From: a virus
Length of the DNA: 46,674 bases
Reading direction: 5' to 3' (one strand)
IMG/VR virus record: IMGVR_UViG_3300036398_003363
Span: 1-46,674 of that record
The translations under genes and the position numbers were made by a program. Below the pieces are notes generated by a model. It was not told the DNA's origin. It saw nothing but the letters and a program-made list of their open reading frames with translations, and did no database searches. Every line of letters begins with the position of its first letter. Position 1 is the stretch's first letter. Of the stretch, positions 3,499 to 19,914 are shown one piece after another.

Positions 3499-6400
3499 TT
3501 AACTAGTGTGCTCTACAATGTGTACAGGCGTGTCGACTTCGATGTCGCCGCGCCGATAAGCCGCAATCGCATCTTTTTTGTTTCGGAACACTTTTGGCTG
3601 CGCCTTTTTATCCACGCGATTAGAAGCAACATACAGCCCAGACTGAAATTCCGCTACTGGCGTGTAATGTGCTTTAAACGTCGAGGCAGCAAACAGATTT
3701 TTGCTCGGCAACATCTTTACGATAGCTTCTTTTGCTGCTTCATCCGTGCTTGGGACGTGATATTGCATCGCGTCCCCGTCAAAGTCGGCTCCGAAACCTT
3801 TTGTTACGAGCGGGCTCACCTCCATAACCTTGTTTTTCGTTAATCGCGGGTAAAACGCCATCATACCATAGCGATGCAGCACCGGCGCTCTGTTAATTAC
3901 AATTGGCCGCGAGCTCATTTGCGTCTGTAGCTCCGCGTGGGCCTCTTTGTTCTTGCTTTCAAAGGCGTTTACAGCCTCCATGCGCGGCAGACCCCGGCGG
4001 ACGAGACCCCGTACGATAAATGGCTTGTATATCTCCCACGCTTTCTCTTCCGGCAGCGCCACCTGATCCATATCAAGGTCAGGGTTCGGCGTAATTACAG
4101 CGCGGCCGACGAGATCCACCGTGCTGCTAAGCAGTTTTCGCTGTACGGTGCCGTACTTTGGCGAATTACCGAAGATTTGCGACAGGAAACCGCGCACACG
4201 CCGCTCAACGTTCTTGGCTTGCGTTGGATCGCCTAGACCTGTGACGCCCTTCATCGCGTCATATACACCCAAACGCGCGTCGCCTGTATCTTCAAGCACA
4301 CCAGCCGACTCTTTTAGTGCGCCGTTAGCGTCGAGCAGCTCTTTGTACAGATAGTTTGCGTCAGCCACGAGCGGCATCTTCTTCTGCCCCATCGTCGACA
4401 CAGGTCGAAACATAGGCGGAATAACCGGCATCTTGTTTAACATCCAGCTCTCTGGGTGTACGCCGGTTTTTTCTGCGCTTTTCAGGAACGCAAGCTTTCG
4501 CACAGCTGCGTCGCGCAGAGTTTTACGGCCAGATTGGATGTCTTGGCGCGCCTGCTCAATCGCTTTTGGCAGATTGATCTTTTTAAGCGCGGCTGAAATA
4601 GCTTGTGGGCCAGTTGCGTCGTCTAGCTGCTCGCGGCCAGCCAGTACGTCCCGGAATTTCTTTTCTGTTAACCCGAGCACGCGACGAATCGGCTCTTCCA
4701 TAACAGGATTCGGCATCGGCTCAGCCAGCGTGATCTTCGACCAGCGATTTCCGTTGTGCCCGCCTGTGATGGTCTCGTCAAATAACCCGCCGGCTTTAGG
4801 CCGCATTCCGGCTTTCCAGTCAACCGTTTCGGCGTTCTTGAGCTCACGATCGCCCGCAAGTTGCTCGATGTCTTTGTCGGTCAGCGCCATGATGTGCGTT
4901 TTTGTGCCTTCGCGCACTGTGTTAATACCAGAGCCGCGCAGCTGCTCTACGAACTTAGTGTACACCTGCGGAATCCGCGGAAGCGGGGCAGAATAGCCAG
5001 CCATGAACTGCGACCAGTATTCGGGGTTAGCCTGCCCGCGCACCATTTTGGCGTCGCGTATTACCTGCCCGGCGCCGTGCGATAATAACGCGCCAAGGTC
5101 GAGCGTTCCGATGCGCTTGGAGCCTGTCTCGCCGCCCTTTGCCGGAGCGCCTTCAGCCGTGTAGCCGCCGGTTGATCTACCTTGCGCTTTTGCTTCGGCT
5201 GTATGGTGTAACTTCATGAAAAAGCGATTGCCGACAAGCACGTCTTTAATTTTGCGGCCTGTATCGGGGTCGGTTACGTTCTCAAGATCTTGCAGACCGT
5301 TTTTGCGTAACTCGCTTTTAGCGAATTCGATGAGATCCTGCTGGCTGTCGAAGTCTTTAATCTTGAAAGGCTGGCCTGTCTTCTCGGCGACTTTACCGAG
5401 AGCCGCTTCGATGAGCTGCGCAGGATTAATACGGCTCGCCAGACCGAGCGGACTGACCAGCACCTCAAGCGGGCGATTCTGGGCATCCTGCGGCATTTGA
5501 TCGTCGGGGATAACAGCGGCAACAACGCCTTTATCGCCAAACCGACCGGTCAGCTTATCGCCGACTTCCATGCCGGCCTGATTTTTCACTACGACACTGA
5601 AGCCCTTTTTTGTGGGTGTGACGTCCGTGACGGTTCCGGGCGAGTGATGGTTCCAGACCACGCTGTCGTTAGAGAAGTTAGCCGATTTGCCGCGATAAAC
5701 TTGGCCGTATGTTGTCTCGTTGGCTTTGCTGACAAGAATCAGCGGATCGCCGAACTTCACGGTGGCGCCCTTTTTAATTACGCCGTTGTCGTCGAAATTC
5801 TCGAGCGTTTTCTTGTCGTACTCTTGCGGGAATAAGCTGATGAATTTCTTTTTGTCGATGTGGTTGTTCTCGTCAGCTTCGGCTTCGTGCTGGTACATGT
5901 GTTCAGACGTCAGGCGCTTGGCCGCGGACTCTGAAATAACCACAGCATCGTCGTATACGTAACCTTTGAACGGCAAATAACCGACGCGCATATTCAAACC
6001 CAGCGCCGCGGTGCCGTTCTTGTCGGTAAAGTTTGAGGTGGCAAGAAGCTGGCCGGGCTTTACGACATCGCCGGGCTGGACGTTGGCTTTTTGCGTCCAG
6101 AATGTTTTACGGTTAAATGGCGCGTCGTTGTACAGATCGATTACTTGCTTATTGCCGTCTTTATCGCGCAGCGTAATATCGTCGGGCGTTACTGCCACAA
6201 CCTGCGCGTGCCCATCGGCGTACACGGCGCCCATGTTTTTACCCATGTCGTCTTCGTACGACTTACTCGAGTCTGTTGCGACGGCTGATTGAATAAGCGG
6301 GGCTTCAGCGCCAACGAGCGGGAGCGCCTGCGTAAACATGCGGCTACCCATGATCACGCGGTGGCCCTTCATGAACGCCTTCATCGGCACCATGTTTGAG

Positions 6401-7950
6401 AGCGACGACAGTGACGAGTCCATGTCAGGAACCATGTACTGCGCTTCTTCGCGCGGCACGTATTTCATCTTGCCGTTTACGATAGCGGCCACATTCGGCA
6501 GATCGCTGTTATCTTCGCCGGGGAAAGCCAGCGGCACGTCAGCGATGTCCTGCGGCGACTTGTATTCCAGCTCGCCGGTCTTGAGGTTCTTCACCTTCAT
6601 GTAGATTTTGCCGTCAGAGCCCTTTAAAGCTCCGCGGGCAAATCGCATATCGACGCCGACCTTGCCAGATTCCGGTGTTCTGAGGTAATCCACAAAACCG
6701 AAATGGCTCGGTTGCACACTGCGGCTTTCAACTGGCACCGCGTCCAAGCTCCCGATACCGCCTTCGCCAAGTCGTGTGACGCGCGCTTGATGATCGAAAA
6801 TTTCAGCCGGATTAATTTCCTCAAGGCTCGAGCCCAGCCCGCTTCCGACAAGCGCCGCAGTAATAGCTTTGTTAAATACGCCCGTCGGAACGTGGTCGAG
6901 TGTTTTCTTTGCCGTAGCCTTCCAAAGTAACTGCCGCAGCGTGTTGCGGTCTTTGGTAAACCGCTCGGCGATCAAATCCTCTGGCCCGAGGATATGCTGG
7001 AACGCCATGCTGTCGCGGTCGTCTGGGTCTGATTCTTTGCGATTTACAGCAATCAGCTTTTTTGTGATCTTAAGAATAGCGTCAGGCGTGAGGTTCTTAA
7101 TAGGCTCTCCCAGCGTGCGCTTTGTCACCTCCGGGTCCATCTCCATCCGACTAAACTCATCGAAGATAGCCTTCTGCTTGCCTTCCGCGTCGATACCGGG
7201 CACTGGCTTGTAGACAAGTCGGCTGTATAGCTTATCGATAGTGCCGGCGTCGCCTTTTTCCATGTTTACAGCGGTAAGTTCGTTGCCCCACGCTTTGCGG
7301 ATTTCTTGCTCCGGCACGCCCATAGCTTTAAGCATCGGCATAAGGGGGATCTGCGCCTGCCCGATATTGATCTTAAATACGCCGGTCTTGGGGTCGAGGA
7401 AGTAGCGGTGCATGCGGCCTTTACCCGGCAGCACATTCACATGCGCTTCGAGCTCGCCGTTGTCTTTCTCGCGGGTGTATACGCCAGCCCGCAACCGCAT
7501 CTGGTGCGCCAGCGTGTACTCGACGCCGTTGTTTACGAACGTCCCGGCGTGCGTAAGGTATGGCACATTAGCGATAGTGGCCCGCTTCTGCGAGATAGGC
7601 TTGCCTGTTGCGTTATCTGTTAGCGTCCACGTTCCGCGGAGCTTTCTGGCTAAACTGCCGTGCGACAAAATCGCGGCTTTATGCTCGCGCTTTGAGAACG
7701 TCTCTGGGCCTTCGTAGCCGACGTCCTGCAGACTTAACGTATACAGATCGTTCTGGATCGGCTTGATATTCTGGGCTTCTCGTACAGCGCCGTTAAAGAT
7801 GTTGTTGCGAATAGCGCTCGGCTCAAACGGCGCTACGGCAATGGCCGACTGCTGCGCTTGCTGGAACACGCCACCGCGAAGAGCGTTTACGTCACCGAAT
7901 TCACGAGTGCTTGGCGTCAGTATCGAGTTGGACGGATTTAAGTCTGGCAT
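3499..7950 (-). CDS. RNA polymerase beta fused to beta-prime N-terminal part
   Basis: A 1483-residue fused catalytic subunit. The beta landmarks appear in order. The first is THAGTFVNNGVEYTLAHQ near residue 132 (compare GTFIINGTERVIVSQ). The second is VPMKAFMKGHRVIMGSRM in the central region. The third is LGLNMRVGYLPFKGYVYDDA, and the fourth is GDKLTGRFGDKG near 795-806 with both active-site lysines. The last is ARSTGGY-like GRSTGGYTAEG with the beta C-terminal region to about 1050. Beta-prime starts around 1090. MPVIPPMFRP lies near 1173, INRAPVLHRYG follows, and GADFDGD near 1386-1392 has all three catalytic Asp residues. The chain stops about 90 residues later. No beta-prime N-terminal zinc-binding domain is present, and I find no cysteine in the whole protein. 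ATG 7950 is preceded by GAGAAAG. Homology to bacterial RpoB and RpoC is clear by eye. The missing part of beta-prime is at 1-1840. Confidence 0.97.
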   Translation of the reverse strand: MPDLNPSNSILTPSTREFGDVNALRGGVFQQAQQSAIAVAPFEPSAIRNNIFNGAVREAQNIKPIQNDLYTLSLQDVGYEGPETFSKREHKAAILSHGSLARKLRGTWTLTDNATGKPISQKRATIANVPYLTHAGTFVNNGVEYTLAHQMRLRAGVYTREKDNGELEAHVNVLPGKGRMHRYFLDPKTGVFKINIGQAQIPLMPMLKAMGVPEQEIRKAWGNELTAVNMEKGDAGTIDKLYSRLVYKPVPGIDAEGKQKAIFDEFSRMEMDPEVTKRTLGEPIKNLTPDAILKITKKLIAVNRKESDPDDRDSMAFQHILGPEDLIAERFTKDRNTLRQLLWKATAKKTLDHVPTGVFNKAITAALVGSGLGSSLEEINPAEIFDHQARVTRLGEGGIGSLDAVPVESRSVQPSHFGFVDYLRTPESGKVGVDMRFARGALKGSDGKIYMKVKNLKTGELEYKSPQDIADVPLAFPGEDNSDLPNVAAIVNGKMKYVPREEAQYMVPDMDSSLSSLSNMVPMKAFMKGHRVIMGSRMFTQALPLVGAEAPLIQSAVATDSSKSYEDDMGKNMGAVYADGHAQVVAVTPDDITLRDKDGNKQVIDLYNDAPFNRKTFWTQKANVQPGDVVKPGQLLATSNFTDKNGTAALGLNMRVGYLPFKGYVYDDAVVISESAAKRLTSEHMYQHEAEADENNHIDKKKFISLFPQEYDKKTLENFDDNGVIKKGATVKFGDPLILVSKANETTYGQVYRGKSANFSNDSVVWNHHSPGTVTDVTPTKKGFSVVVKNQAGMEVGDKLTGRFGDKGVVAAVIPDDQMPQDAQNRPLEVLVSPLGLASRINPAQLIEAALGKVAEKTGQPFKIKDFDSQQDLIEFAKSELRKNGLQDLENVTDPDTGRKIKDVLVGNRFFMKLHHTAEAKAQGRSTGGYTAEGAPAKGGETGSKRIGTLDLGALLSHGAGQVIRDAKMVRGQANPEYWSQFMAGYSAPLPRIPQVYTKFVEQLRGSGINTVREGTKTHIMALTDKDIEQLAGDRELKNAETVDWKAGMRPKAGGLFDETITGGHNGNRWSKITLAEPMPNPVMEEPIRRVLGLTEKKFRDVLAGREQLDDATGPQAISAALKKINLPKAIEQARQDIQSGRKTLRDAAVRKLAFLKSAEKTGVHPESWMLNKMPVIPPMFRPVSTMGQKKMPLVADANYLYKELLDANGALKESAGVLEDTGDARLGVYDAMKGVTGLGDPTQAKNVERRVRGFLSQIFGNSPKYGTVQRKLLSSTVDLVGRAVITPNPDLDMDQVALPEEKAWEIYKPFIVRGLVRRGLPRMEAVNAFESKNKEAHAELQTQMSSRPIVINRAPVLHRYGMMAFYPRLTKNKVMEVSPLVTKGFGADFDGDAMQYHVPSTDEAAKEAIVKMLPSKNLFAASTFKAHYTPVAEFQSGLYVASNRVDKKAQPKVFRNKKDAIAAYRRGDIEVDTPVHIVEHTS

Positions 7951-15502: not shown

Positions 15503-15799
15503 TTAACGCAGCATACCAAAAATCGCGTTAACTATTGCGTATGTCATGTACAGCCAAAACGTTACGCCAATTACCCAGCCGATCTTACGTAAAGGTAATT
15601 TGAAAAATTCCGTGCGAAGCTGCTGAAACGGGATATTACGCAAAATAGCCAGCGCGCGGATGTAGTTAATCAGCTGAATGTTGCTGGGTGTAACAACTGG
15701 CGGCTCTGGAGTGACTGGAGCCGGTTCCGGTGCGGGAGCCGGCTCTGGTTGCGGCTCGACTCTCTTTGGATACAGCCAGTTGCGCACTCTGTTAAACAT
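15503..15799 (-). CDS. proline-rich membrane-anchored protein
   Basis: 98 residues from ATG 15799, which overlaps the end of the Nudix gene by eight bases; a longer reading to 15856 would lie mostly inside that gene. The order is a basic N-terminus (MFNRVRNWLYPKR), a Pro/Glu/Ala linker (PEPAPAPEPAPVTPEP) of the TonB spacer type, a helical block (IQLINYIRALAILRNIPFQQL) and a C-terminal transmembrane helix (KIGWVIGVTFWLYMTYAIVNAIF, in part GVTFWLYMTYAIVNAI). It is likely tail-anchored in the inner membrane. Family unknown. Confidence 0.75.
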   Translation of the reverse strand: MFNRVRNWLYPKRVEPQPEPAPAPEPAPVTPEPPVVTPSNIQLINYIRALAILRNIPFQQLRTEFFKLPLRKIGWVIGVTFWLYMTYAIVNAIFGMLR

Positions 15800-18101
15800 T
15801 TTTCGATAGCGCGTTAAGCACGCCGTCTCCACGTTCGTGAATAAGCTGCGTGGCAAAATCTTGTTTCGGGTACTGTCCCCGCGCGATCGCCAGATACTTC
15901 TGCTCGCGATGGCCGGGTATTAACGTATCACGCCATGACTCTGTATTGCGGTCGAGCGCGGCCTGATTGTCACCACGGTCTTTCACTTTACGGACGTGCG
16001 CCATGACGTTCCCCAACAGCGACTGGTTCTGGTCGTACTGGATGGGCGTCTGCGTCAAATGCCTGAAATACGGATTAGACGCAGCCTTGGATTGAACTGG
16101 CACAACAGTCGGGATAATCAGCGGGTCGGCGTGGAACTTGAACTTGGTAGGGGCGTGCGTAATTCCCATGTGATACGGCTCTGGATCGTCTACCACCCAC
16201 TCGTGCGGCGCCTCGGCCATGAGCTTCTTCAGAATCTGGTTCTTCTGGTCGTAGCGCTTATTGTCAGAATGCTCTTTGGCTTCGCGCAGCTTACGAATAA
16301 TAGCCGGCATAGCGGCTTTTTCGCTCAGCTTTTCTTTTTCGTAGTACCCGGGGTCTTTTTGCAGATGATCCTTGGCAATTTCTTTGGCGACTTGATCATT
16401 GCTGGTATGTTCGTGCTCATCTGCGGCTCCTGCGGCAAGGTCTTTTGGGGAAAACTTACTATCGGGAATGTTGTCGGCTTTACCGCCCGGGAGAAGGTCG
16501 GCGGCGGTCTTCTTAGCGGCGTTAGCAATAATGTGATTAAGCGCAGCTATACGCGCGGTAGCAATAGCGGGCGCGTTGTATTTTTTCACACGCTGCATAA
16601 TCGCCAAAGCTTCGGTCGGATCGTAGTAGCCGCGATCTTTGGCAGCCCAAAAATCGAGATTTTTGCCTTGAGCGTGATTAACAATGTCGGCGGCAATAAA
16701 ATGCGTCCGAGAACCAGCAAAATTGCCGCGCCCTTTTTTGGCTTTTTCAGCGCGCATCTTTGCAGTCCAAGGAAAATCAACAGGCGCCACGGGAAGCACA
16801 CGCGCGTTGGTAGCCTTAATGCCAGTTTCTTCCTCTAACTCGCGCAAAGCGGCCGTAGCTGGATCCTCGCCCGGGTCAATACCGCCACCGGGCAGCGCGA
16901 AAGATCCGTCGTTGTCCCACTTGCCGCCATAGAGTTTGCCTGTGATTGGGTCGCGGGCATAAACCTCAGCGCGTTCGCGCCACGGTAATTTTTCTGCCGC
17001 TTTTTTAAGCACAGGCGCAAGCAATTTCTTAATGTCCGGCCCAATGTAGTCATCGCCCTCGGGAACGCCGTGCGCCAGCGTGATAATCGGATCAGATCCT
17101 ACAGTGGCTTTAAAATTACCGGGTTTTAGTTTGTGCTTAGCCAGTTCAAGATAGTGCTCATGCGGGTTATTTGGATCAGTGCCTAATGCGCGAAACGCAG
17201 TTGGTTTGATCTTTACCCCAAGCTCTTCAAACATCTCGCGGGCGGCTGTTTGCGCAGGCGTTTCACCAGCTTCGACACCGCCGCCAATAAACCTCCGCTT
17301 GCCGAGGTTTTGCGGCCACTTCGGGTTGTTAAGTGTTTCGAGCAAGTACTTGCCCTTATACGGGAGTACCACGCGTACACGCTGTTGGACCGCGTCGGCA
17401 TTCGCAGCCTTTTCTCCCGCGCAGCATGATTTTTTGCAGACGCAATTAGGCGGGCAGGTGCAACGGCCGGAGCAATTGCACTCATACGTTGTTTCGGCGT
17501 CTGCGGCGGCTTTCAGCTCACCGCGGCCGGCGGCAGTGTCAAACTTGCTGACGGTGTTGTCACGCAGGACGTTTCTACGCCGGACAGCTACGGTAATGTG
17601 GAACGGGTGGTCGCCATTGGGCAGCGCAGACAAGCCGTAGCTCTTGCGCAGTGCCGACAACTCTGGGCTTGAGATTTGAATAACCCAGAGCTTGCTCACG
17701 CCGTCGATGTTGTTGGGTGTGATCTCTTTAATCGGGCCTAGAGCGTACTTAAAAGAATGCCCGCGCTCGTTAATCTTACCGGGGCCGATCCGCTCGACCT
17801 CTTCGGCTGTCATGGCCGAAATATGCGCGTTTAAAAGCTCTTTGTCTACGTTGGGCACATTCAGCGTGCCCGCCAGCGGCAGCTCAGCCCCGGCATGCGA
17901 CATGGCGTCAAATACGCCGCGCACAAGGGCGTTCGGCACTGACAAGAGCAGCCAGCCGCTTTTGGCCAGATAGAGCCGGCCAGAGAGATGATATTCAGTG
18001 CCGGCTGTTTTAGCCGACTTTGAGAGCCAGCCGTGCGCGTTGCCAATGGTGTAAAACGGCGACGCCTGCGTTGACTGGTATAAGACAGACAATCCGTCCA
18101 T
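15792..18101 (-). CDS. 2H phosphoesterase-like + double Nudix fusion
   Basis: 769 residues. Residues 90-175 carry two H-x-[ST] motifs (HIS at 93-95, HIT at 168-170) at the spacing of 2H phosphoesterases, which cleave cyclic or 2'-5' phosphodiesters. Residues 208-227 hold a metallothionein-like cluster with all eight cysteines of the protein in CxC and CC steps. Two perfect Nudix boxes follow: GGVEAGE...REMFEELGV (about 274-296) and GGGIDPGE...RELEEETGI (about 405-428). Near 566-592, TSNDQVAKEIAKDHL resembles a motif found in other phage virion polypeptides. The C-terminal 170 residues are unassigned. A processed polyprotein or a multifunctional nucleotide-clearing enzyme is possible. The Nudix assignment is firm, the 2H assignment moderate. 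Confidence 0.9.
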   Translation of the reverse strand: MDGLSVLYQSTQASPFYTIGNAHGWLSKSAKTAGTEYHLSGRLYLAKSGWLLLSVPNALVRGVFDAMSHAGAELPLAGTLNVPNVDKELLNAHISAMTAEEVERIGPGKINERGHSFKYALGPIKEITPNNIDGVSKLWVIQISSPELSALRKSYGLSALPNGDHPFHITVAVRRRNVLRDNTVSKFDTAAGRGELKAAADAETTYECNCSGRCTCPPNCVCKKSCCAGEKAANADAVQQRVRVVLPYKGKYLLETLNNPKWPQNLGKRRFIGGGVEAGETPAQTAAREMFEELGVKIKPTAFRALGTDPNNPHEHYLELAKHKLKPGNFKATVGSDPIITLAHGVPEGDDYIGPDIKKLLAPVLKKAAEKLPWRERAEVYARDPITGKLYGGKWDNDGSFALPGGGIDPGEDPATAALRELEEETGIKATNARVLPVAPVDFPWTAKMRAEKAKKGRGNFAGSRTHFIAADIVNHAQGKNLDFWAAKDRGYYDPTEALAIMQRVKKYNAPAIATARIAALNHIIANAAKKTAADLLPGGKADNIPDSKFSPKDLAAGAADEHEHTSNDQVAKEIAKDHLQKDPGYYEKEKLSEKAAMPAIIRKLREAKEHSDNKRYDQKNQILKKLMAEAPHEWVVDDPEPYHMGITHAPTKFKFHADPLIIPTVVPVQSKAASNPYFRHLTQTPIQYDQNQSLLGNVMAHVRKVKDRGDNQAALDRNTESWRDTLIPGHREQKYLAIARGQYPKQDFATQLIHERGDGVLNALSKNV

Positions 18102-18121: not shown

Positions 18122-18283
18122 TTAGCGAGGCCGAGCTTGGATGTCAGGGATTCTGACCGCGGTCGGCTCTCGCTGCTGCACATGCTCCGCGGCGGCTTTA
18201 GCTGAAATCAGCAGCAGTCCAGCGCAAACCATCATCGCCATGGCCGCAGCTACGCTCAGGTCTTTACGAATTTCCTGTGTCAT
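18122..18283 (-). CDS. small membrane protein (53 aa)
   Basis: Short gene overlapping the end of the holin-like gene by 20 bases in another frame. ATG 18281-18283 has GGAGT ten bases upstream, and the frame runs to TAA at 18122-18124. The product begins MTQEIRKDLSVAAAMAMMV, with one transmembrane or signal segment (about residues 10-28, AAMAMMVCAGLLLISA) and a short polar tail. It fits a small lysis accessory or holin antagonist in context, with no family match. Its size makes the call less certain than its neighbours, but the ribosome site and coupling support it. Confidence 0.6.
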   Translation of the reverse strand: MTQEIRKDLSVAAAMAMMVCAGLLLISAKAAAEHVQQREPTAVRIPDIQARPR

Positions 18284-18623
18284 CTTCTGGACTCCCGTGG
18301 TCGTCGCGTTCGTGGGTAATGATGACTTTTATGCCTGCTCCGGCTAACAGAGATATTAACAAATCGGTGAGCGTCGAACCACCCATGCCGGCCAGCACGC
18401 AAATTCCTATTAATCCGTGAACGTTTTCAGCTTTTCGGTAATTTTGGTACCAAATTAACGCTATAGCCAGCCCCAGAAAGCCGGCGTTCAGCATTGCACT
18501 AATTATAGCTACATAGGAGACCTTTTTCCGCGAAAACCGCAGAAGCGTAGCCAGTCCGGCAAATGACGATACCCCGAAAGCACTGGCAAACACAGTTAAC
18601 GAATGCATATATTCGTCGAGCAT
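18264..18623 (-). CDS. three-helix membrane protein, putative holin
   Basis: 119 residues with about three transmembrane helices (residues roughly 10-28, 36-58, 70-98), separated by a basic loop (RFSRKKVSY), and a strongly acidic and His-containing C-terminal tail (HERDDHGSPEDD). The topology fits holins of the three-helix kind, but no family motif is certain. GAAGGTGG precedes ATG 18623. The structured intergenic element lies directly upstream (18647-18876), so that element could act as the leader of this gene. Confidence 0.65.
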   Translation of the reverse strand: MLDEYMHSLTVFASAFGVSSFAGLATLLRFSRKKVSYVAIISAMLNAGFLGLAIALIWYQNYRKAENVHGLIGICVLAGMGGSTLTDLLISLLAGAGIKVIITHERDDHGSPEDDTGNS

Positions 18624-18646
18624 GTTGCCACCTTCAGTTAAAACAA

Positions 18647-18876
18647 GTTAAGTGTTGTGCGCTCCTGTGATCCCCTCCACAGGTCCGAACCCCGGCGAAC
18701 CGGGGCAAAGCAATGACTTTCTAAGGCGTATAACTCAACCTCGTGCGGCATTCATCGCTCCACCTACCGTGTACACGGCCGTAGCCTGACCACGGACTCC
18801 CGCTAAACACGTCACATCCCTGCTCTGTATTTAGCCCTAACCAGTCGGCCACCACGACTAACGCACAACACTTAAC
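18647..18876 (-). ncRNA. candidate structured RNA closed by a 15-bp stem
   Basis: This is the largest gene-free stretch in the window (18624-18909). Its ends, gttaagtgttgtgcg at 18647-18661 and cgcacaacacttaac at 18862-18876, are perfect 15-bp reverse complements. Inside are four more perfect stems: 18664-18669 with 18678-18683; 18690-18695 with 18700-18705 around a four-base loop (UUCG on the minus strand); 18802-18807 with 18830-18835; and 18843-18847 with 18855-18859. A 12-base palindrome lies at 18767-18778. No open frame of note crosses it. I compared it by eye with RNase P RNA, tmRNA, 6S and SRP RNA and saw none of their conserved cores. The strand is assumed to follow the neighbours. 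A DNA-level role (origin, centromere-like site) is not excluded. Confidence 0.55.
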
Positions 18877-18909
18877 AGTTTATCAGCGTTGAAACACAAC
18901 CCGAAATGC

Positions 18910-19914
18910 CTACAGGATCTTAGCCGCGATTAAACAACCGCGCGCTACGGCGTGTAACGGGTCAGCGGCATGTCTGACTTCTTTAATCTCGAGCGGAAAA
19001 TCGGCTTCTGCCAGCTTCTTGGCAAATAAGTCGACAAACCCGGCCGCTTTACTCGTACCGCCCGCTACCGCAATTGGCAGCGGATTCTTGAACTTCGGCA
19101 GGAGCTTGTGGCCCGTGAGCGCAGCCGCCAGCTGTTTTGCCGTGTAATCGATCAGGCGCTCGTAATAAGCAGATACGGCACCCAGAATCGGACTTTCGTT
19201 CGGCTCGCCCACAACGAACGTGCCGTGTTCCTTTTCAGCCTGCACAACCGAGTCTGGCTCGGCTGTTGCGACGGCGGCCATGCGATCCACCCAGTCACCT
19301 GACTTAGTTGTGGAGAACATAACAGTCGGCTCGCCATTGAGCATGACGCAGCAATTCACCATACCCGCGCCCCACGAAAGAGCGATGCCGGTGTAATCGT
19401 CGTTCTCGAATTCGGAGTAGCACAGCGCTTCAGCTTCATTGATAGCCTTTGGGCTATAGCCGACCTCGCTTAAGATAGCCTTTACTATATCTTCGTGGTA
19501 ACCGACGTCGAAGTCCTCGTCTTCTTGATCGACAGGCTGCGCCGGGATACAGAACACGATCTTTTCGCCCGGTTCGCTAGCTTGGCCAGAGACTTCCTTG
19601 AGGATATAGGCCAAAATACGTTTGGCGTCTTTTTCCTTGGGGCTGACGACACCGCGGTACATCGGGCGCTTGGCAGACTCGTTGCGCTCCACGGCTTTTT
19701 CAATAGCATCTTGACCGAGCAGGATAAAGCTGCCGTCTTCGTCTTTTACAACGACCCGGCCCGCTAGACCTTTCTCGATCATCTTGGCGGCGACGGGCGT
19801 GGTCGGCTTAATAACGTAAAACGCGTCACGGAAGTCTTTGTATTCGACCGTGCCGGATTCGCCGTCTTTGGCAAGAACCACGAATGATGTACCAACGTCT
19901 AGACCTTTAGCCAT
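18910..19914 (-). CDS. actin-like ATPase (ParM/MreB/Hsp70 superfamily)
   Basis: 334 residues with actin-fold landmarks. LDVGTSFVVLAK at residues 5-16 is phosphate-1, NEAEAL at 159-164 is the connect-1 region, LSWGAGMVN at 179-187 is phosphate-2, and AVAGGTSKAAGF near 282-293 is the adenosine motif, followed by a final HAVARGCLIAA helix. Phosphate-2 is atypical: the usual Asp at its start is Ser, so ATP hydrolysis may be altered. The gene starts directly after a small membrane protein (19917-20270), which could anchor the filament. Phage and plasmid actins position or segregate DNA; that role is inferred here. The ribosome site AAAGG lies inside the end of the upstream gene. Confidence 0.88.
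   Translation of the reverse strand: MAKGLDVGTSFVVLAKDGESGTVEYKDFRDAFYVIKPTTPVAAKMIEKGLAGRVVVKDEDGSFILLGQDAIEKAVERNESAKRPMYRGVVSPKEKDAKRILAYILKEVSGQASEPGEKIVFCIPAQPVDQEDEDFDVGYHEDIVKAILSEVGYSPKAINEAEALCYSEFENDDYTGIALSWGAGMVNCCVMLNGEPTVMFSTTKSGDWVDRMAAVATAEPDSVVQAEKEHGTFVVGEPNESPILGAVSAYYERLIDYTAKQLAAALTGHKLLPKFKNPLPIAVAGGTSKAAGFVDLFAKKLAEADFPLEIKEVRHAADPLHAVARGCLIAAKIL

What the first reader, a model, noticed from the sequence alone, without database searches (positions are those of the whole stretch)
18647..18876. Candidate new structured RNA closed by a perfect 15-bp stem
The only large gene-free region has perfectly matching 15-base ends, four further perfect stems (one with a UUCG-type loop) and a 12-base palindrome in 230 bases. 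No known RNA class was recognised. It lies between the actin-like ATPase gene and a holin-like gene. It could be a stand-alone ncRNA, a leader that controls the holin, or a DNA site used by the actin system.
Basis: partly seen in the sequence, partly recalled or inferred. Interest (0 to 1): 0.72.

Follow-up and report, generated by a model that had tools for sequence, protein, structure and literature searches.

The report
New pseudoknotted phage RNA before holin
A roughly 220-letter RNA with an elaborate, evolutionarily supported fold sits directly in front of a probable cell-lysis gene in a whole group of large uncultured bacterial viruses; it matches no known RNA family and may control when the virus bursts its host.

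Summary
Window 18647-18876, read on the MINUS strand (the strand of the neighbouring genes), is one member of a sharply defined RNA family that I found in about 92 IMG/VR contigs (roughly 50 distinct sequences), apparently all from one group of ~200-kb uncultured phages, one copy per genome. 97% of cells are paired, 44 of 66 pairs change on both sides, and no shuffle equals this. G-U pairs outnumber A-C mismatches 387 to 18, so a sense-strand RNA is selected, not a DNA site. No Rfam family, sequenced phage or prokaryote species genome matched. The RNA abuts a conserved -10-like box and always ends 18-59 nt before one weakly holin-like gene (47/47 and 80/80), while the gene upstream varies. The actin-like neighbour (Volactin) is incidental: Volactin phages outside this group lack the RNA. 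Best reading: a promoter-proximal 5' leader RNA controlling a holin/lysis operon in cis (about 0.5). Main rival: a trans-acting ncRNA cut from that leader (about 0.33). Mechanism is untested. The family is new to Rfam; one phage-RNA catalogue I could not open might already list it.

The parts
18647..18876 (-). whole structured RNA domain, 5' end at 18876, 3' end at 18647
   Evidence: covariance model R1 hit 18649-18873 (-), 197.5 bits, E 4e-66; 66 pairs supported by covariation. The window near-twin L001 was in the training set, so the score alone is not independent.
18862..18876 (-). P1, 5' strand (15 bp in the window; median 14 bp in the family)
18647..18661 (-). P1, 3' strand
18843..18859 (-). 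P2 hairpin, near-invariant loop UGGUGGY
   Evidence: 3 of 5 pairs with two-sided changes, all cells paired
18848..18852 (-). pseudoknot, 5' half (P2 loop)
   Evidence: pairs with 18745-18749 in every sequence; C-G/U-A/U-G exchange; best of 591 candidate helices
18745..18749 (-). pseudoknot, 3' half (P5 internal loop)
18807..18830 (-). P3, variable stem with CA-GGGA-UG (GNRA-type) loop
   Evidence: 6 of 8 pairs with two-sided changes; loop GGGA in 34/43, UGGA in 8/43
18767..18795 (-). P4 with an inner mini-helix
   Evidence: 3 of 9 pairs with two-sided changes, 96.6% of cells paired
18710..18758 (-). P5 and P5a
   Evidence: 10 of 12 pairs with two-sided changes
18689..18706 (-). P6 hairpin (UUCG loop in the window)
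   Evidence: 7 of 8 pairs with two-sided changes
18664..18683 (-). P7 hairpin
   Evidence: 4 of 7 pairs with two-sided changes
18877..18884 (-). -10-like element GATAAACT abutting P1
   Evidence: 5/6 or better match to TATAAT in 32/52 distinct upstream sequences against 12.2 (max 21) in shuffles; weak in the window itself, where no sigma-70 promoter pair is found
18264..18623 (-). downstream holin-like gene (119 aa, three predicted helices)
   Evidence: phrog_6384 (holin) in 9/10 members, best E 9e-5, but 0.06 for the window protein; no Pfam family above cut-off; three helices at low confidence
18582..18632 (-). predicted hairpin over the start codon of the holin-like gene (possible output of control)
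   Evidence: more stable than synonymous-codon shuffles on average, mean z -0.86 over 46 sequences, not universal
18910..19914 (-). Volactin (actin-like) gene upstream; a neighbour, not judged a functional part
   Evidence: PF25216, E 7e-63

Best explanation
SHOWN by comparison: the minus strand of 18647-18876 encodes a ~220-nt RNA domain, a multi-branched junction closed by a long P1 stem, with seven further conserved helices, a GNRA-type P3 loop and a P2-loop/P5 pseudoknot. SHOWN: in all members examined it lies just upstream of one holin-like gene. INFERRED: transcription starts at the conserved -10-like box so that P1 begins at or next to +1, and reads through the RNA into the holin-like gene and the genes behind it, because the 18-59-nt gap leaves no room for a full second promoter in most members. 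INFERRED, most likely function: the folded domain is a cis-acting 5' leader setting the expression, and so the timing, of the holin/lysis transcription unit, by binding a ligand, a phage or host protein, or the transcribing polymerase. Access to the holin start codon, which in many members lies in its own hairpin, is one possible output. Which of these inputs and outputs applies is unknown. Confidence that the RNA is real and selected is about 0.97; the figure below is for the cis-leader mechanism.
For: Covariation far above both controls and strand-specific G-U use. Constant downstream partner: 47/47 distinct RNAs and 80/80 loci of the holin-like gene, gap 18-59 nt, while the upstream gene varies. 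-10-like box abutting P1. No consistent terminator after P1. Start codon of the holin-like gene tends to be in a stable hairpin. The RNA and the gene are both absent from the other Volactin phages examined.
Against: No conserved expression platform (terminator/antiterminator or sequestered ribosome-binding site) joins the RNA to the gene; the gap is variable in length and sequence. T-runs just after P1 (TTTT in the first 12 nt in 11/49, against 0/49 further on) could mean partial termination, i.e. a separate small RNA. The whole region is syntenic within one phage group, so constant adjacency is weaker evidence than it looks. Holin assignment is weak for the window protein (E 0.06).
Confidence: 0.5

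Rival explanations
1. A stand-alone, trans-acting ncRNA, transcribed from its own promoter and ended or processed at P1, that acts on host or phage machinery (ribosome, RNA polymerase, packaging) and merely shares an operon start with the holin-like gene.
For: Both ends of the RNA pair with each other in P1, which abuts the -10-like box; very highly conserved core; T-rich tract after P1 in a share of members; no visible expression platform. Large phage RNAs of unknown function such as GOLLD and ROOL are known (PMC12286853).
Against: No consistent terminator, and in most members no room for a separate promoter of the next gene. Never found away from the holin-like gene, although region-wide synteny weakens this.
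Confidence: 0.33
2. A self-cleaving or otherwise catalytic RNA that processes the operon transcript upstream of the holin-like gene.
For: Compact pseudoknotted fold with a highly conserved core.
Against: No match to any ribozyme in Rfam even at E 5-10; no sequence hint of a cleavage site.
Confidence: 0.06
3. A DNA element (centromere-like or nucleating site) used by the actin-like Volactin system; the stems are DNA inverted repeats.
For: The island directly adjoins the Volactin gene in the window.
Against: G-U pairs 387 versus A-C 18: selection is on RNA. Direct repeats absent. Distance to Volactin varies from 36 nt to several kb, and 21 other Volactin phage records lack the element.
Confidence: 0.02

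Closest known systems
Riboswitches / structured 5' leaders in Rfam
   Same: Compact conserved fold at the start of a transcription unit, directly before one constant gene.
   Different: No sequence or structure match to any of 4227 families; no ligand known; no recognisable expression platform; linked gene is holin-like, not metabolic.
HK022 put RNA (promoter-proximal antitermination RNA; PMC9378689)
   Same: Phage RNA element at the start of a transcript, promoter-proximal.
   Different: put is a much smaller element that acts directly on the host polymerase; the element here is ~220 nt with nine helices, and no effect on polymerase is known.
Lambda S 'sdi' structure (holin start-region stem; PMC3359269)
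   Same: mRNA structure at the start of a holin gene controls initiation; a start-codon hairpin is predicted in many members here.
   Different: sdi is a small start-site structure; the new RNA is a separate large domain upstream, and dual starts were not shown.
GOLLD / ROOL / OLE (large ornate RNAs; PMC12286853)
   Same: Elaborate, highly conserved phage- or bacteria-encoded RNAs of unclear function; GOLLD rises during lysis.
   Different: Those are about 600-800 nt or more, GOLLD and ROOL often lie near tRNAs, and their Rfam models do not match here.

Membership tests
Any Rfam 15 family (4227 models) | Covariance-model score at or above the gathering threshold | tested here: not met
   No match in the island at gathering threshold, at E 5, nor any credible match for two distant members at E 10
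Riboswitch | Conserved structured domain in the 5' UTR of a constant gene | tested here: met
   Position and conservation shown; transcript itself inferred, not observed
Riboswitch | Expression platform coupled to the domain | tested here: inconclusive
   No conserved terminator or SD-sequestering helix; start-codon hairpin in many but not all members
Riboswitch | Specific ligand | not testable with these tools
   needs in-line probing or SHAPE with ligands
HK022 put RNA | Promoter-proximal position | tested here: met
   -10-like box abuts P1 in most members
HK022 put RNA | Direct effect on RNA polymerase pausing and termination | not testable with these tools
   needs in vitro transcription
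GOLLD / ROOL / OLE | Match to the Rfam model | tested here: not met
Actin-type partition (centromere) site | DNA direct repeats next to the actin-like gene | tested here: not met
   no direct repeats found; RNA-specific G-U pairing; element absent from other Volactin phage records
Phage holin (the downstream protein) | Small multi-helix membrane protein matching holin profiles | tested here: inconclusive
   phrog_6384 in 9/10 members, best E 9e-5, but E 0.06 for the window protein; no Pfam match above cut-off; three helices at low confidence

The most novel reading that the evidence does not exclude
A new class of regulatory RNA: a ~220-nt pseudoknotted leader that senses a signal, or binds the phage's own RNA polymerase, and so sets the lysis clock of a group of large phages; to my knowledge the first RNA of this complexity tied to holin control.
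Probability: 0.3. Interest if true: 0.88.

Novelty: new variant of a known kind. Interest (0 to 1): 0.7.

Why it matters
Few phage RNAs of this complexity are known and several have no known function. This one has a secure secondary structure, a firm boundary, a single constant partner gene and about 50 distinct natural variants, so its role can be tested at once. If it controls the holin, lysis timing in these large phages would be set partly by a structured RNA.

Tried and rejected
DNA/centromere idea: rejected by G-U bias and by absence from other Volactin phages. 12-nt palindrome as a dimer site: not conserved. Coding island: no conserved ORF. Known RNA at low stringency: none credible. 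Isolated phages: no DNA or holin-like protein match in 50,697 records; two huge phages with distant Volactin lack the RNA and the holin-like gene. Prokaryote species genomes: no exact pattern match (a pattern search, not a covariance-model search). Missing Shine-Dalgarno at the partner gene: not special in this phage. Terminator/promoter scans around the RNA: nothing clear. The model of the holin-like protein is too uncertain (mean pLDDT 62) for a fold search. The 2023 catalogue of candidate structured RNAs in viruses and phages (Fremin and co-workers; title and DOI recalled from memory) was not held, so prior listing there could not be checked.

Full report
OBSERVATION. The island 18647-18876 is bounded by a perfect 15-bp inverted repeat and lies between genes ending at 18623 and starting at 18910. 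Both strands fold much better than dinucleotide shuffles (minus -99.1 kcal/mol, z -4.6; plus -76.8, z -5.3). Rfam finds only a tRNA elsewhere in the window, and nothing in the island even at E 5.

HOMOLOGUES. Starting from the neighbouring actin-like protein (Volactin, PF25216, E 7e-63) I fetched related phage contigs and saw the same island in many of them, always on the strand of the genes. A pattern from its most conserved stretch found 83 IMG/VR contigs and no contig among 84,980 prokaryote species genomes. Later searches added about nine more contigs, about 92 in all by my hand count. Whole records of 198-205 kb carry one copy each; one record has a second, very weak match (G034, E 0.004, 14 bits) that I regard as chance.

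STRUCTURE. Forty-three distinct sequences (mean identity 69%, minimum 54%) give 61 nested pairs, 42 with two-sided compensation. Mutual-information ranking puts 19 annotated pairs in the top 20, and a non-nested pair that is 100% pairable (columns 26 x 129) ranks alongside them. It extends to a 5-bp pseudoknot between the P2 loop and the P5 internal loop: the best of 591 possible 5-bp helices between unpaired columns, paired in every sequence, with C-G/U-A/U-G exchange. For all 66 pairs: 97.0% of cells paired, 44 pairs with two-sided changes, 0/500 shuffles; slid controls pair only 36-44% of cells. An alignment with 47 distinct model-fitted sequences gives 97.5% and 48; that alignment leans towards the model by construction. 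G-U cells number 387 and A-C cells 18: the molecule under selection is the sense-strand RNA, not duplex DNA. The P3 loop is GGGA in 34/43 sequences.

NEIGHBOURHOOD. In all 47 distinct RNAs with enough downstream sequence the next gene encodes the same ~119-aa protein; conversely all 80 retrieved loci of that protein carry the RNA, ending 18-59 nt before its start. The gene upstream varies: Volactin, a ~152-aa gene, or others. The 119-aa protein has three predicted helices (low confidence) and weak holin profile matches (phrog_6384 in 9/10 members, best E 9e-5, but 0.06 for the window's own protein). Genes further downstream include other small membrane proteins, one with a marginal holin resemblance, and a matrixin-type peptidase with a peptidoglycan-binding domain. 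Volactin phages outside this group (21 records, many of them fragments) lack both the RNA and the 119-aa gene. The actin link therefore looks incidental.

TRANSCRIPTION. A -10-like hexamer abuts P1 (5/6 or better in 32/52 distinct upstream sequences, against 12.2 on average in shuffles), so the transcript probably starts at P1 (inference); in the window itself the element is weak and no standard promoter pair was found. In some members an extra hairpin lies between this box and P1. No consistent terminator follows P1, although short T-runs are enriched there. The gap to the holin-like gene cannot hold a full second promoter in most members, so the RNA is probably the start of that gene's mRNA.

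MECHANISM. I favour a cis-acting leader controlling the holin/lysis unit (0.5). The start codon of the holin-like gene tends to lie in a hairpin more stable than synonymous shuffles (mean z -0.86, 20/46 below -1, 3/46 above +1), which recalls the lambda S sdi element (PMC3359269), but it is not universal. A trans-acting RNA cut from the leader is the main rival (0.33). A put-like effect on polymerase (PMC9378689) is a specific form of the cis idea; the phage encodes its own large multisubunit-type RNA polymerase chain. Missing Shine-Dalgarno sequences are common in this phage and do not discriminate.

NOVELTY. No Rfam relative and no isolated-phage relative. It is a new RNA family; in kind it resembles structured leaders or ornate phage RNAs. 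The 2023 catalogue of candidate phage RNAs could not be opened, so prior listing cannot be excluded.

Noticed in passing
18910-19914: A Volactin-family (PF25216) actin-like protein, a family named from haloarchaea, is encoded by at least 264 matched stretches of IMG/VR contigs, including phage groups with quite different neighbourhoods yet about 76-79% identity to this one.
   Followed up: partly
3499-7950: A single 1483-aa ORF carries both RNA polymerase beta (Rpb2) and beta-prime (Rpb1) domains, i.e. an apparent beta/beta-prime fusion in a phage.
   Followed up: no
L088, L101, L109, L129, L147 (just upstream of the RNA): An inverted repeat such as CTACCG...CGGTAG lies directly before the -10-like box; its sequence differs between members but the palindrome is kept. 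A TTTGACAATTTGC-like stretch recurs further upstream.
   Followed up: no
L011, L022, L047, L115 (5' of P1): An extra hairpin (e.g. GGUGUUUACGG...CCGUAAAUACC) lies between the -10-like box and P1 and overlaps the 5' strand of P1, so the two could compete.
   Followed up: partly
window and related loci, many genes: Several genes of this phage group start without a recognisable Shine-Dalgarno sequence, in some gene families in nearly all members.
   Followed up: partly
15792-18101: A 769-aa protein with 2H phosphoesterase and NUDIX matches; relatives in the same position range widely in length and some appear to lack the NUDIX stretch.
   Followed up: no
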